Below, in pieces: positions 3,069 to 21,015 of a stretch of 37,051 nucleotides of DNA. Under the pieces are notes generated by a model. That model was given only the letters and a program-made list of their open reading frames with translations, did no database searches and was not told the origin of the DNA. The stretch is from Oscillospiraceae bacterium. Lineage in GTDB: Bacteria; Bacillota; Clostridia; Oscillospirales; Ruminococcaceae. The stretch covers positions 1 to 37,051 of the forward strand of contig JAFLUF010000013.1 in the NCBI GenBank assembly GCA_022508925.1. The letters run 5' to 3'. Each line of letters begins with the position of its first letter. Positions within the stretch are counted from its first letter, which is position 1. The translations under genes and the position numbers were made by a program.

Positions 3069-3182
3069 CCCCGCTCGAAGGCGAGCCGCCTTTTGCAATA
3101 CGTCTCACGCGTGAAACGTTGTCAAAGGTTGTGACTCGAATCGTGCGATACTTCTATATCGCACGCACCCTAATGAGCGGGG
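3069..3182 (+). repeat. Structured repeated element, copy A
   Basis: It shares an 89-base ungapped core with a second element at 20892-21015 (75 of 89 identical by hand count, AAGGCGAGCC to CGCACGC). The outer stem is CCCCGCTC (3069-3076) with GAGCGGGG (3175-3182). Inside are hairpins AAGGCG/CGCCTT (3078-3092), CGT/ACG around a CTC loop, and GTGCGATA/TATCGCAC (3143-3164). The stretch GAAACGTTGTCAAAGG is unchanged between copies. It lies between the convergent genes feoB and a BspA-like gene. On the minus strand the outer stem is followed by TTTTTT, so this copy may also end transcription of the BspA-like gene. I do not recognise it as a known RNA family. Confidence 0.7.
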
Positions 3183-3189
3183 CTGAATT

Positions 3190-4617
3190 TTAACCATACA
3201 GTTTTAGCCATTCGTCAAGCGTATAGGTCTTGCCTTTATACGTTATGCTCGTAAGACCTATACAGCCCTCAAAAACATAATTACTGACTGAGGTCACACT
3301 GTCGGGAATCGTTATGCTTTGAAGGCTTATGCAATTGGCAAACGCACCGGAATCAATAGAGGTAACGCCGTTACCGATTTTTACTCTCGCAAGGCTTGTG
3401 CAGTCACAGAAAGCATGATATTTGATTTTGGTCACGCTGTCAGGAATTGTAATACTTTTAAGACTGTGGCATTCAAGAAACGCCATAGCACCTATCGTTT
3501 TCACACCGTCCGGAACAGCAACCTCTACCGCATTGTACAGACAGTCTGCGACCTCATAATCAACAATATATAATCCGTTTTCGTCATAAGGGTATTTATT
3601 GTAATCATATATGACATTTTCTATCTCACTTAAAGGAAATTCTTTTTGCTTATAATATATGCTTTCAAGACATACGCAATATTTGAAAACATCGTGGTCA
3701 AGCGTTTTAACACTGTCGCCGAGATATACGCTTGTAAGAGACATACAGTTTTGAAAGGCGCCGTATCCGATCATTGTAACGCCGTTACCTATTTTTGCGC
3801 TCGTAAGGCTTATACAATTTTGAAACGCGCCGTATCCTATCTCGGTAACACTGTCCGGAACATCTATGCTTGTAAGACTTTTGCAGTTATAAAAAGCATT
3901 ATCACCGATATATTTCACGCCGTTTCCGATTTTAGCGCTGATGAGACTTTCGCAATTATAAAATGCGCCCTCGTCAATATAAGCAACACTATCGGGTATG
4001 GTAATATCTATAAGATCTGAGCATTCGCTGAAAGAAAACCCGCCTATGTAGGTCACACTTTCAGGGATAGTTATACGCGTAAGGCTTTTACAACCGCTGA
4101 ATGCTCCGTCGATTGAGGTAACGTTATTTCCAAGATATACGCCCGCGAGATTTGTACAGCCATTGAAAGCGCCATTGCGAAGCTCGGTCACGCTGTCGGG
4201 AATAGTAATGCTTGTAAGGCTTGTGCAATCATTGAAAGCATAATCCCCTATCATAGTCACGCTGTCGGGAATTGTTACGCTTGTCAACTTGTCACAGCAG
4301 TTAAACGCAAAATCGCCTATCGAGGTTACGCCGTCGGGAATGACAACCTGTTTGATATCTTTATAATAACAGCCGATTACCTTATTATTCTCGATACTCA
4401 GTCCGTAGTTGAACGGAGAGGCATCGGAATCGCCATAAGAGCTGCTTTGCAAATCGTCATAGGAATTTGAGCTGTCATAAGAATTGCTGTGGGAATTATC
4501 GAAGCTGTCAGAATCATTCCACAGGGAATCAAGCCATCTTGAAAAACTGCTGCATCCGCAAAGCATAACTGCCGTTAACACAGTAAGCGCCGCCGCGCCA
4601 ATTTTTCTTAGTCTCAC
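3190..4617 (-). CDS. BspA-like leucine-rich repeat lipoprotein (475 aa)
   Basis: The protein starts at a GTG (4615-4617) with GGAGG seven bases upstream. It has a signal sequence with lipobox LCGC (Cys at about 22), then a Ser/Asp/Tyr-rich spacer to about residue 65. The remainder is a run of about 23-residue repeats of the treponemal/BspA class, with consensus LTSITIPDSVTxIGxxAF then xxC. The repeats are interrupted near residues 315-355 by a non-repeat insert rich in Tyr and Asp. Such lipoproteins sit on the outer face of the membrane and typically bind surfaces, host proteins or polymers; the ligand here is unknown. It ends with a tail containing YKGKTYTLDEWLKLYG, close to the tail of the second BspA-like protein (7119-9143). 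It is convergent with feoB. Confidence 0.88.
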   Translation of the reverse strand: MRLRKIGAAALTVLTAVMLCGCSSFSRWLDSLWNDSDSFDNSHSNSYDSSNSYDDLQSSSYGDSDASPFNYGLSIENNKVIGCYYKDIKQVVIPDGVTSIGDFAFNCCDKLTSVTIPDSVTMIGDYAFNDCTSLTSITIPDSVTELRNGAFNGCTNLAGVYLGNNVTSIDGAFSGCKSLTRITIPESVTYIGGFSFSECSDLIDITIPDSVAYIDEGAFYNCESLISAKIGNGVKYIGDNAFYNCKSLTSIDVPDSVTEIGYGAFQNCISLTSAKIGNGVTMIGYGAFQNCMSLTSVYLGDSVKTLDHDVFKYCVCLESIYYKQKEFPLSEIENVIYDYNKYPYDENGLYIVDYEVADCLYNAVEVAVPDGVKTIGAMAFLECHSLKSITIPDSVTKIKYHAFCDCTSLARVKIGNGVTSIDSGAFANCISLQSITIPDSVTSVSNYVFEGCIGLTSITYKGKTYTLDEWLKLYG

Positions 4618-7088: not shown

Positions 7089-7120
7089 CCCCCCACTCAT
7101 ATAAGTGGGGGTCAATTTTT
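7089..7120 (+). terminator. Intrinsic terminator after the hydrogenase
   Basis: CCCCCACT pairs with AGTGGGGG around a CATATA loop, followed by TCAATTTTT. It lies 16 bases past the hydrogenase stop. Confidence 0.85.
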
Positions 7121-9143
7121 AATTTCCGTTTATTGCTTTATATAAGTCGTCAATGTGCTTATAGTCGTAGGTTTTGCCTTTGTAGGAAGCAGTGAGGTTC
7201 TGACATTTATTGAAAGCCCAGAGACCTATTTTGGTTACGCTTTCGGGGATCTCCACATTTGTAAGGCTTTGGCAGTTTTCAAATGCGCTAATGCCAATAG
7301 AAACAACACCGTTCGGAATATTTACGTTTGTTAGACTTTTGCAATTGAAAAATGTCGTTTCGCCTATTGCGGTCAGACTGTCCGGGAGTGTAACGATTGT
7401 AAGACCTTCGCAGTTTTCAAACGCGCTGTCGCCCACCGAGATAACGCCGTCCGGCAGCGTTATACCTGTAAGGCTCGTACAGCCTTCAAACGCCTGAACG
7501 CCTATCTTAACAAGACTATCGGGAAATTCAACGCTTTTAAGTCCCGTACAGCCTTGGAAAGCTCCCTCGCCGATACGGGCAACGCTGTCGGGAATAACTA
7601 TACTCTCAAGGCTTTCGCAATTATTGAAAAATTCAAGTCCTATCTCTTCAATACCATTGGGCAGCGTAGCATTTTTCAGTTTTTCACAGCCGAAGAAAAC
7701 TTGCTCTCCAAGCTCTGTCACACTATCGGGAATCGTTACGCTCGCAAGGCTCCTGCACCCACCGAAAGCGCCTTTGCCGATCTCGGTAACACTGTTGGGG
7801 ATAGTTATGTCCGAAAGCTTTTCACAGTAAATAAAAGCTTTTTCACCAATTGAAGTAACGCTGTCGGGAATGGTTATGCTTGTGAGGTCCGAGCAGTTGT
7901 CGAAAGCCCGGTTTCCTATTGAAGTAACGCCATCGGAAACCGTTACGCTTTTCAGATTTTCGCAGTAATAGAAAGCGCTGTCTCCGATAGCGGCAACGCC
8001 GTCCGGAATAACCACCGTTTCAGCATCGTACAGACAGTCAATAACCGTGTTATCGACAATACACAAGCCGTTTTCGTCATAAGAATAATTTACGGCAAAA
8101 TATATATCGTCTTTAGAGTATTCTTTCTGCCTGTAGTATATGCTCTCAAGATTATCGCAGTTAATGGAAGTAACCGTGCCAAATTCGGTGACAATGGTCC
8201 AACTGCTCTTCCTGCTTTTGTTCCAGCCGAAGGCATCTTCACCTATTGAGGTCACGCTGTCGGGAATTGTTACGCCCGTAAGACTTTCGCAAGACAAAAA
8301 AGCCTGGCTGCCAATATGGTTCAAGCTGTCGGGAAGCGTAATGCCCGGAAGACTTTTGCAGCCTTGGAAAGCGCTGCTATGAATACTGATTACGCTGTCC
8401 GGAAGCGTAACGCTTGTCAGACCCATGCAGTTAGCAAAAGCATAGTAGCCGATCTCTGTCACACCGTATGGGATATCTATGCTTGTAATGCTTTTACATC
8501 CGTAAAAAGCAGATTCGCCTATCTTCGTCACGCCGTCGGGTATATTTATGCTTGTCAGGCTTGTACAGCCGTTGAAAGCTCTGCCGCCAATCTCCGTCAC
8601 GCCGTCGGGAATATTTACGCTTTTAAGGCTTGTACAGCCGTTAAAAGCGGAACCGCCAATCTCTGTCACACTGTCGGGAATTTTTATGCTTTCAAGGCTT
8701 TCGCAGCCGTCGAAAGCGTGATTGCCGATTTTAGTCACGCCGTCGGGAATTGTAATACTTGTCAGGTTATTACAGGCGTAAAAGGCATTGTCGCCGATCT
8801 CCGTAACGGTGTCAGGGATAGTTACGCTCTTAATATTGGAAACGTGTTCAAATGTGACCGCATATGTGTTATCGGAAACCTCCGTCGTAACCATCTCTTT
8901 TTTGTCAATATTAAAAGTGTCGTATAATTTAACTACCGGCTTTCCGTCCAGCTCTTTCGGTATCACAATTTTTTCGCTGTCGCCGAGGTATTTTGTAATC
9001 GCCACTCCGCCGTCGGTTTCCTCGTACTCATAAAGTTCTTCGTCTTTAACGCCGAATACATTTATGCCGTTTTTTTCGCAGCCGCAAAGCGTGACAGCAA
9101 GAGCCGCCGCGGTGATTGACGCGAAAACTGTCCTTAATTTCAT
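7119..9143 (-). CDS. BspA-like leucine-rich repeat lipoprotein (674 aa)
   Basis: The chosen start is the ATG at 9141-9143, which has AAGGAGGA eight bases upstream and places the lipobox LCGC (MKLRTVFASITAAALAVTLC) correctly. An in-frame TTG 57 bases further upstream lacks these. After the lipid-anchored Cys comes a short domain of about 90 residues without repeats, then a long array of about 23-residue BspA-type repeats (consensus IPDSVTxIGxxAFxxC). The array is broken twice: by an insert with a Trp/Ser-rich stretch (SSWTIVTEFG) and by a Tyr/Asp-rich block resembling the insert in the smaller paralogue. It ends with YKGKTYDYKHIDDLYK. It is a likely surface adhesin or polymer-binding protein of unknown ligand. 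A strong promoter with a palindromic spacer lies upstream, and it has no operon partner. Confidence 0.88.
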   Translation of the reverse strand: MKLRTVFASITAAALAVTLCGCEKNGINVFGVKDEELYEYEETDGGVAITKYLGDSEKIVIPKELDGKPVVKLYDTFNIDKKEMVTTEVSDNTYAVTFEHVSNIKSVTIPDTVTEIGDNAFYACNNLTSITIPDGVTKIGNHAFDGCESLESIKIPDSVTEIGGSAFNGCTSLKSVNIPDGVTEIGGRAFNGCTSLTSINIPDGVTKIGESAFYGCKSITSIDIPYGVTEIGYYAFANCMGLTSVTLPDSVISIHSSAFQGCKSLPGITLPDSLNHIGSQAFLSCESLTGVTIPDSVTSIGEDAFGWNKSRKSSWTIVTEFGTVTSINCDNLESIYYRQKEYSKDDIYFAVNYSYDENGLCIVDNTVIDCLYDAETVVIPDGVAAIGDSAFYYCENLKSVTVSDGVTSIGNRAFDNCSDLTSITIPDSVTSIGEKAFIYCEKLSDITIPNSVTEIGKGAFGGCRSLASVTIPDSVTELGEQVFFGCEKLKNATLPNGIEEIGLEFFNNCESLESIVIPDSVARIGEGAFQGCTGLKSVEFPDSLVKIGVQAFEGCTSLTGITLPDGVISVGDSAFENCEGLTIVTLPDSLTAIGETTFFNCKSLTNVNIPNGVVSIGISAFENCQSLTNVEIPESVTKIGLWAFNKCQNLTASYKGKTYDYKHIDDLYKAINGN

Positions 9144-9256
9144 AAAATTGTCCTCCTTATGTAATAGAACGTAAACTGAAATTTTACAGCGCATTTTCAA
9201 ATTTATTTGGTCTGTATTACCTCCTCAGTTAATCGAAACACAACTGCTTGTTTTTT

Positions 9257-20891: not shown

Positions 20892-21015
20892 AAAACGTAT
20901 TGCCAAAGGCGAGCCGCCTTTGGCAATATGTCTCACATATGAAACGTTGTCAAAGGTCGCTGCTTGAATTGTGCGATACTTCCGTACCGCACGCTCCTTA
21001 AACTGAGCACGTTTT
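20892..21015 (+). repeat. Structured repeated element, copy B
   Basis: It shares the 89-base core with the element at 3069-3182. The outer stem is AAAACGT (20892-20898) with ACGTTTT (21009-21015), unlike copy A in sequence but in the same place. The first hairpin is much longer here: 14 bp, from TATTGCCAAAGGCG (20898-20911) to CGCCTTTGGCAATA (20915-20928), with an AGC loop. The next small hairpin is TATGT/ACATA around a CTC loop, where copy A has a shorter CGT/ACG. The third hairpin GTGCGATAC/GTACCGCAC has a single mismatch. It lies between the DHH phosphoesterase stop and the promoter of the radical SAM gene. Confidence 0.7.

What the first reader, a model, noticed from the sequence alone, without database searches (positions are those of the whole stretch)
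20892..21015. A structured element occurs twice, 18 kb apart
Two intergenic stretches (3069-3182 and 20892-21015) share an 89-base core without gaps, 75 identical by hand count. Many of the changes fall in proposed helices and keep or improve pairing: the small CTC-loop hairpin reads TAC-GT/AC-GCG in copy A and TAT-GT/AC-ATA in copy B. The block GAAACGTTGTCAAAGG is unchanged and unpaired, as a binding site or loop would be. I do not recognise it as a named RNA, riboswitch, tRNA, SRP RNA or group I intron. Both lie after a gene stop and on the same strand as that gene.
Basis: partly seen in the sequence, partly recalled or inferred. Interest (0 to 1): 0.8.

Follow-up and report, generated by a model that had tools for sequence, protein, structure and literature searches.

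The report
Mobile hairpin DNA inside terminator loops
The two repeated stretches are copies of a small jumping DNA hairpin, found dozens of times in this bacterium's genome and often sitting inside the loop of a gene-end stop signal; it is probably not a specific working RNA, but its choice of landing place is unusual.

Summary
They are not a pair: the home genome (G000) has about 36 matching places, and sister species G011 holds a partly different set. The unit is about 94 bp, AAGG...CCTT, usually followed by AA. Half to two thirds of the copies sit in the loop of a locus-specific, terminator-like hairpin: self-complementary flanks at <=-16.1 kcal/mol in 29 of 58 copies, against 392 of 6000 random intergenic AA sites. 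In 7 of 8 filled/empty site pairs the empty site folds as a hairpin with AA in its loop. Orientation to genes is mixed and wobble pairs show no overall strand preference. So this is a small non-autonomous mobile hairpin (MITE/REPIN-like), not a strand-specific regulatory RNA. The block called unpaired is the 3' arm of the long hairpin. The mobilising enzyme was not found: three transposase families (Y1, DDE_Tnp_1_6, IS110) are absent from G000 and not associated with carriers. Rfam and ten literature searches gave no name.

The parts
3078..3171 (+). Copy A of the mobile hairpin element (94 bp, AAGGCG...CACCCT), followed by AA 3172-3173
   Evidence: shared with relative G011 (L117, 92/95 identical)
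3069..3076 (+). Left arm CCCCGCTC of the terminator-like hairpin that holds copy A (A-run before it)
   Evidence: fold; flank duplex tests (L007)
3175..3182 (+). Right arm GAGCGGGG of the same hairpin (short T-run a few bases after it)
3143..3164 (+). Second hairpin of copy A, GTGCGATA/TATCGCAC (helices 5-6)
20906..20999 (+). Copy B of the mobile hairpin element (94 bp, AAGGCG...GCTCCTT), followed by AA 21000-21001
   Evidence: present in G011 (L088, 88/96), absent from the syntenic site in G012
20892..20898 (+). What is left of the left terminator arm of copy B (AAAACGT; AAAACGTGCTT in G011)
21009..21015 (+). Right terminator arm of copy B (ACGTTTT; AAGCACGTTTT in G011)
20895..20931 (+). Near-perfect 17-bp inverted repeat ACGTATTGCCAAAGGCG-AGC-CGCCTTTGGCAATATGT; its left arm replaces the terminator arm seen in G011 (probable template-switch correction of a quasi-palindrome)
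   Evidence: (I1); flank duplex -9.8 here against -18.7 in G011

Best explanation
The element is a short (~94 bp) non-autonomous mobile DNA hairpin of Oscillospiraceae and related Clostridia. Its two ends (AAGGCGWGCC... and ...GCGTGC-like, CTCCTT) form short terminal inverted repeats. Together with a long inner hairpin and a second hairpin they can fold single-stranded DNA or RNA into a clover. A recombinase supplied in trans (not identified) recognises the ends and joins the element next to an AA dinucleotide, preferentially where the target is itself a hairpin, often the loop of an intrinsic terminator. This leaves AA on both sides: a 2-bp duplication, or equivalently a 94-bp element inserted 5' of AA. 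The element's own 5' AA can serve as a target, giving head-to-tail arrays with a period of 93-95 bp. The insert folds on itself, so the terminator stem can still form, which makes the site tolerable to the host. Shown: many copies, presence/absence between sister species, AA junctions within 1-3 bases, nesting in hairpins, array period. Inferred: a trans-acting enzyme, recognition of hairpin DNA rather than selection alone, and continued terminator function.
For: About 36 places in G000. blastn matches in 13 of 43 and end pattern in 15 of 43 genus genomes, 16 by either. Named records with the exact end pattern: 57 stretches, all MAGs titled Oscillospiraceae, Ruminococcaceae, Ruminiclostridium, Ruminococcus or uncultured Clostridia. 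Nesting: own-flank duplex mean -16.0 against -8.8 kcal/mol for mismatched flanks, 0 of 20,000 permutations as low, n=58 (orthologous copies of G000 and G011 both count, and a few neighbours of tandem units slipped through the filter); G000 alone -15.5 against -8.35, n=25, tandem units included. At <=-16.1 kcal/mol 29 of 58 copies against 392 of 6000 random intergenic AA sites; at <=-14, 37 of 58 against 598 of 6000. Filled/empty pairs: L016, L008, L026, L002, L013 filled in G000 and empty in G011; L124, L140, L128 filled in G011 and empty in G000; the aligner's single gap is 92-95 bp where it gave one (L016, L002, L124, L140, L128). Seven of these eight empty sites fold as a hairpin of -12 to -22.5 kcal/mol with AA in the loop; L128's does not. 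Copy B is absent from the syntenic G012 site, a plain terminator-like hairpin. At one intergenic spot G000 and G011 hold copies in opposite orientation and only 81/95 alike (L003, L123), pointing to two insertions. Stem probability with the element 0.92 (+ strand) and 0.81 (- strand), against 0.92 and 0.82 with a GAAA loop, 29 copies.
Against: No transposase with matching ends was found; the end-orphans that I looked at were short or fragmentary copies. 20 of 58 copies have flank pairing weaker than -11.5 kcal/mol (L024, L136, L129, L252, L065 and others), and L128 is an insertion without a hairpin. One to three bases next to the junction often differ between filled and empty sites, so the AA duplication is read with some ambiguity. 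Gain rather than loss is supported by outgroup G012 only at two sites shared by G000 and G011 (copy B, L136); for sites that differ between G000 and G011 the G012 comparisons were mostly not clean. The stem-probability test used copies chosen for strong stems, and shuffled inserts did almost as well (0.88 and 0.78).
Confidence: 0.75

Rival explanations
1. A functional structured RNA (3' UTR or terminator-associated regulatory or processing element) kept by selection at many genes.
For: Stable fold beyond shuffles (z -4.5 to -6.2 over both copies and strands); 84.4% of cells paired and more both-side changes than shuffles; position next to gene ends.
Against: Orientation is mixed: 11 (+,+), 17 (-,-), 18 convergent, 8 divergent of 54 classified. 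No overall GU-over-AC preference. Tandem arrays, presence/absence between sister species, and middle hairpins that differ by type while the ends stay recognisable.
Confidence: 0.1
2. A REPIN-type system: end-conserved hairpin doublets mobilised by a single-copy Y1 (RAYT) transposase.
For: Similar anatomy to REPINs as described in PMC3116915 (passages): conserved ends, spacer conserved in length and in capacity to form a hairpin with compensatory changes, a clover fold, tandem arrays.
Against: No Y1_Tnp match in G000, nor in G012, G013 or G028; present in 9 of 43 genomes, 2 of 16 carriers and 7 of 27 non-carriers, p=0.45. No GTAG head in the consensus (by eye).
Confidence: 0.12
3. A MITE of an IS1182/IS1272-like DDE transposon that targets terminator hairpins.
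For: IS1272/TnSha1 inserts into inverted repeats, several of them confirmed terminators, without primary sequence specificity (PMC4923244, PMC5678879, passages). The element has short terminal inverted repeats.
Against: DDE_Tnp_1_6 is absent from the five richest carriers G000, G011, G012, G013, G028 (12 of 43 genomes, 5 of 16 carriers, 7 of 27 non-carriers, p=0.74). IS1272 deletes or replaces the hairpin, while here both arms are kept with AA on either side.
Confidence: 0.08
4. Spread without a dedicated transposase, by replication template switching and recombination between hairpins.
For: Copy B shows a probable quasi-palindrome conversion; arrays can grow by slippage.
Against: Near full-length insertions at sequence-unrelated loci seem to need an integration reaction.
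Confidence: 0.05

Closest known systems
REPINs (REP doublets forming hairpins) with RAYT transposases
   Same: Short, intergenic, conserved ends with a variable but self-pairing middle, tandem arrays, alternative clover fold (PMC3116915, passages); similar size (recalled)
   Different: No Y1 transposase found in G000 or in 14 of 16 carriers; no GTAG head (by eye); here the landing site is often a terminator loop
IS1272 / TnSha1 (IS1182 family)
   Same: Target chosen by hairpin structure, often a transcription terminator (PMC4923244 and PMC5678879, passages)
   Different: IS1272 is 1,934 bp with its own transposase and replaces or partly deletes the hairpin with no duplication; here a 94-bp element sits in the loop, both arms stay, AA on both sides
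SPRITE, RUP and BOX repeats of Streptococcus pneumoniae
   Same: Short interspersed foldable repeats, often near gene ends and inserted into one another (PMC3049150, PMC10969869, passages)
   Different: SPRITE itself looks like a terminator; here the host's own hairpin surrounds the element; hosts differ. Sequences were not compared

Membership tests
MITE (miniature inverted-repeat transposable element) | Short, non-coding, many dispersed copies | tested here: met
   ~94 bp, about 36 places in G000; 9 of 63 copies overlap a predicted ORF of at least 100 codons, not examined further
MITE (miniature inverted-repeat transposable element) | Terminal inverted repeats | tested here: met
   AAGG/CCTT ends pair in 89.8% of cells (helix 1); extended to GCGTGC/GCACGC in G028-type copies (by eye). 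Short and imperfect
MITE (miniature inverted-repeat transposable element) | Target-site duplication and presence/absence polymorphism | tested here: met
   AA on both sides in filled sites, once in empty sites; 8 pairs, with 1-3 nt ambiguity
MITE (miniature inverted-repeat transposable element) | Ends match an autonomous element of the same or a related genome | tested here: inconclusive
   No long element with these ends among the end hits inspected; only fetched stretches were looked at
REPIN/RAYT | Y1 tyrosine transposase (RAYT) in the genome | tested here: not met
   PF01797: none in G000; 2 of 16 carriers
REPIN/RAYT | Conserved ends, variable self-pairing spacer | tested here: met
   (by eye)
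IS1182/IS1272 derivative | IS1182-type DDE transposase in carriers | tested here: not met
   PF13751: 5 of 16 carriers, none of the five richest
IS1182/IS1272 derivative | Targets terminator hairpins | tested here: met
   that the hairpins terminate transcription was not tested
IS110/IS1111 derivative | DEDD transposase in carriers | tested here: not met
   PF01548: 7 of 43 genomes, 4 of 16 carriers, none of the five richest (p=0.39)
Known Rfam RNA family | Match at gathering score | tested here: not met
   Window: 0 matches. 20 related loci: only a cobalamin riboswitch beside the copy in L269

The most novel reading that the evidence does not exclude
A minimal mobile element whose address is a DNA structure: an unknown recombinase inserts a self-folding hairpin at AA in the loops of host terminator hairpins, so the element colonises stop signals without breaking them and can use its own AA end as the next landing pad. 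The enzyme would be of a kind not tested here, not Y1, IS1182-type DDE or IS110-type.
Probability: 0.3. Interest if true: 0.7.

Novelty: new variant of a known kind. Interest (0 to 1): 0.5.

Why it matters
Small hairpin repeats in bacteria are usually catalogued by sequence; why they land where they do is seldom clear. Here many insertions share one structural address, a hairpin loop with AA, and the original hairpin can be read from a sister genome. That gives a natural data set for structure-guided integration and for how mobile DNA avoids harming its host. It also warns that conserved, foldable intergenic repeats can imitate functional RNAs.

Tried and rejected
Functional RNA: rejected as main reading. 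RNAalifold on the first alignment A1 (26 rows) gave no compensatory pairs; covariation appeared with 81 distinct rows and is modest: 13 pairs with both-side changes against 10.3 shuffled, 47 of 500 shuffles as high. tRNA genes were not searched for. Rfam with permissive thresholds on copy B gave only hits below gathering score, mostly microRNA models, also Qrr and ssNA-helicase.

Phage, plasmid or viral vehicle: no match (one copy by blastn; end pattern). Autonomous parent: in the RE-only records L204 and L248 I saw no ORF that I recognised as a transposase (not searched against a library); LE or RE orphans were short copies or fragments. Transposase families PF01797, PF13751 and PF01548: no association with carriers. 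Other families were not searched.

Replication-strand bias as a hint of single-strand insertion: 24 opposite and 19 same by local GC skew over 43 copies, p=0.54; where skew exceeds 0.03, 20 against 9. Inconclusive.

Filled/empty comparisons without a clean answer: L014, L015, L024, L149, L006, L147 from G000; L125, L126, L130-L133, L138 from G011; and most G012 pairs (part of the output was cut). L009, L144 and L146 gave no usable G011 match. L022 in G011 is a partial copy rather than empty.

Literature: ten searches. None of the listings, several of them empty, described this element; six papers were opened as passages only, none read whole.

Family-level distribution: the end pattern was found in 6 of 396 genomes, 3 of 126 genera. 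One of the three genera rests on a single one-mismatch hit (G178) without a recognisable element, and three control hits occurred in the same search.

Full report
WHAT IS THERE. The two stretches are real and were described accurately: 3078-3173 and 20906-21001 align without gaps at 80/96, and the best 89-base window has 75 identities.

IT IS A DISPERSED REPEAT. blastn of copy B against the home genome (G000, 2.18 Mb, 136 contigs, 89.85% complete) gives 42 matches at E<=1e-3; six of them are other-strand matches at a place already counted or in copy B's own flank, which leaves 36 places. Some lie head to tail at 93-95 bp: four units on contig C60, two on C72, two and more on C85; C54 and C13 are interrupted by N. 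A sequence-only profile over 74 chosen loci (mostly G000 and G011, some G012, G013 and named records) finds 93 matches, 81 distinct. In the genus, 13 of 43 genomes match by blastn and 15 of 43 by a conserved 22-base end pattern, with no hit of the reversed control. In a sample of the family the pattern occurs in 6 of 396 genomes and 3 of 126 genera, with three control hits; one of the three genera rests on one weak hit. The exact pattern in the named genome collection hits 57 stretches, all MAGs titled Oscillospiraceae, Ruminiclostridium, Ruminococcus, Ruminococcaceae or uncultured Clostridia, several from ruminant gut samples. No hit in phages or plasmids (one copy, blastn) or viral contigs (end pattern).

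ANATOMY. The unit runs AAGGCGAGCCGCCTTTGGCAATACGT ... ACGTTGTCAAAGG ... GCTCGAATCGTGCGATACTTCTATATCGCACGCTCCTT and is usually followed by AA. 65 of 70 distinct long copies start with AAGG, and 50 of 70 end with the TAA form by a simple motif check. It can fold as outer AAGG/CCTT, then CGAGC/GCTCG, a long inner hairpin, and a GTGCGATA hairpin; or with a small hairpin AAGGCG-AGC-CGCCTT at the very end. On 81 distinct rows 84.4% of cells pair (83.1% in shuffles, 31-45% when slid); cells with changes on both sides number 58 (32.5 in shuffles); pairs with such a change 13 (10.3; 47 of 500 shuffles as high). So hairpins are favoured, but the covariation is modest, and these shuffles do not allow for relatedness. 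G-U cells number 180 and A-C cells (G-U on the other strand) 239; the long hairpin leans one way and the second hairpin the other. There is no overall sign that one strand is the functional one.

VARIANTS. In other members of the genus both ends are recognisable (TTARGG..GTGCGATATAGAAGTAT and GCCAAAGGCGGCWCGCCTT), while the middle hairpin differs by type (read by eye); one type has a unit of 101-103 bp in arrays (L205, L212). In a second genus (g78: G119, G208, G274) the middle resembles a terminator hairpin with a T-run in several loci. Conserved ends around a changing hairpin is what one expects if a recombinase reads the ends.

THE ADDRESS. The flanks of each copy were tested for pairing with each other. 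In G000, 25 copies with tandem units included: mean duplex energy -15.5 kcal/mol, against -8.35 for mismatched flanks. Over 58 copies from G000, G011, G012 and G013, after a simple filter against tandem neighbours that let a few through: -16.0 against -8.8; none of 20,000 permutations as low; 29 of 58 at or below the 5% point of -16.1 and 18 of 58 at or below the 1% point of -20.5; 37 of 58 at or below -14; 20 of 58 weaker than -11.5. Copies shared by G000 and G011 are counted twice there. Against 6000 random intergenic AA sites from 20 stretches of G000 and the window, the cut-offs -16.1, -20.5 and -14 are reached by 6.5%, 2.8% and 10.0%. Many arms carry A- and T-runs typical of intrinsic terminators (my reading; no termination data). 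A few copies lie just upstream of an apparent ribosome-binding site (L065, L118, L136, L250).

EMPTY SITES. G011 is mostly 90-96% identical to G000 in the long matches. Copy B is in G011 but not in G012, where the same two genes flank a plain hairpin AAAAACACCCC-TCGG-GGGTGTTTTT. For 15 G000 copies without a partner among the fetched G011 copies, and 15 G011 copies likewise, I searched flanks in the other genome and in G012. Eight pairs are clean enough to read: filled in G000 and empty in G011, L016, L008, L026, L002, L013; filled in G011 and empty in G000, L124, L140, L128, with L135 a further likely case. The rest gave no usable match or a muddled alignment. Example: empty TTTACCCCCGAC-AA-ATTCGGGGGTAAA; filled TTTACCCCCGAT-AA-[GGCG..TTCCTT]-AA-CTCGGGGGTAA. 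Folded alone, seven of the eight empty sites form a hairpin of -12.2 to -22.5 kcal/mol whose loop of 5-7 bases contains the AA; L128's does not. One to three bases beside the junction often differ, so the 2-bp duplication is the best reading rather than a proven one. G012 also lacks the element at the L136 site that G000 and G011 share, which supports gain in that lineage. Nine orthologous pairs of copies are 92-100% identical between G000 and G011, while the best paralogues within G000 reach 78-93%: most copies are old, and movement went on around the time of the split. At one further spot (L003, L123) the two species have copies in the same intergenic place but in opposite orientation, in different hairpin arms and only 81/95 alike, as two separate insertions would look.

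NEIGHBOURHOOD. Relative to flanking open reading frames, 54 classified copies (not all independent) are 18 convergent, 17 with both genes opposite, 11 with both genes along, 8 divergent; 9 more overlap a predicted ORF. Copy A lies between convergent frames. Thus 'same strand as the upstream gene' is a coincidence of two copies.

HOW IT MOST LIKELY WORKS. Inferred: an enzyme acting in trans binds the two ends and joins the element next to AA in hairpin DNA. Because the element begins with AA, it is itself a target, which explains arrays with a shared AA. The insert folds on itself, so the terminator stem is predicted about as likely with it (0.92 and 0.81 for the two strands) as with a GAAA loop (0.92 and 0.82); shuffled inserts are only slightly worse (0.88 and 0.78), 29 copies chosen for strong stems. 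Selection against harm may add to the pattern, but an about eight-fold enrichment for self-pairing flanks over random intergenic AA sites, and the empty sites, argue that structure is part of the target.

WHO MOVES IT. Unknown. Y1_Tnp, DDE_Tnp_1_6 and DEDD_Tnp_IS110 occur in 9, 12 and 7 of 43 genus genomes, and in 2, 5 and 4 of the 16 genomes that carry the repeat or 23 (Fisher p 0.45, 0.74, 0.39); none is in G000, G012, G013 or G028. Other families were not searched, and about 10% of G000 is missing. Orphan ends led only to short copies or fragments in what I fetched. Local GC skew shows no clear orientation bias (24 to 19; 20 to 9 where skew is strong).

COPY B DETAIL. In G000 the left terminator arm of copy B has become ACGTATTGCCAAAGGCG, the complement of the family's CGCCTTTGGCAATACGT, where G011 keeps ACGTGCTTTGAAAAGGCG. 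A one-step template switch in a hairpin explains this better than several independent changes. The flank pairing of copy B is accordingly weak, -9.8 against -18.7 in G011.

COMPARISON. Anatomy and dynamics resemble REPINs (PMC3116915, passages) but the defining Y1 transposase is missing. The address resembles IS1272/TnSha1, which attacks inverted repeats and terminators by structure (PMC4923244, PMC5678879, passages) but removes the hairpin and carries its own transposase. Pneumococcal SPRITE repeats look like terminators themselves (PMC3049150, passages). Ten literature searches gave no description of this element, within an open-licence library only.

VERDICT. Observation confirmed; the RNA reading is not supported; a mobile hairpin repeat with an unusual structural address is. 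New variant of a known kind.

Noticed in passing
G011 L137:1325-1419; G000 L197, L201; G012 L190, L194, L198, L200, L202: A second dispersed hairpin repeat of about 82 bp (TTATGCTATAATTGCCCGATACGCACGCAGCAAACC..GGTTTGCGGATGTGCGAGGGCATTG..TATAATAAAA), in about 20 places each of G000 and G012; TATAAT-like boxes at both ends.
   Followed up: partly
window 20895-20931: The left terminator arm of copy B was rewritten into a near-perfect palindrome with the element, compared with G011; looks like quasi-palindrome template switching.
   Followed up: yes
L003 1503-1597 (G000) and L123 1491-1585 (G011): The same intergenic spot holds copies in opposite orientation, with different hairpin arms and 81/95 identity: a possible insertion hot spot.
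   Followed up: partly
G000 C108 (L147 around 1467): A terminator-like hairpin whose loop holds only about 17 bases of the element's end (TAAAGCGAGCCGCCTTT), perhaps a deletion remnant.
   Followed up: no
L267, L270, L271, L272 (genus g78): Relatives whose middle hairpin is terminator-like with a T-run, next to the conserved end; suggests that the middle can be exchanged for or evolve into a terminator.
   Followed up: no
L269:1519-1704: A cobalamin riboswitch (RF00174, 49.4 bits) lies about 125 bases downstream of an element copy.
   Followed up: no
window 3190-4617 and 7119-9200: Two genes on the - strand with 69-base repeats encoding 23-residue leucine-rich units; BspA-like by eye, not tested.
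   Followed up: no
L065, L118, L136, L250: Some copies end shortly before an apparent ribosome-binding site rather than in a terminator, so they would lie in a 5' untranslated region.
   Followed up: no
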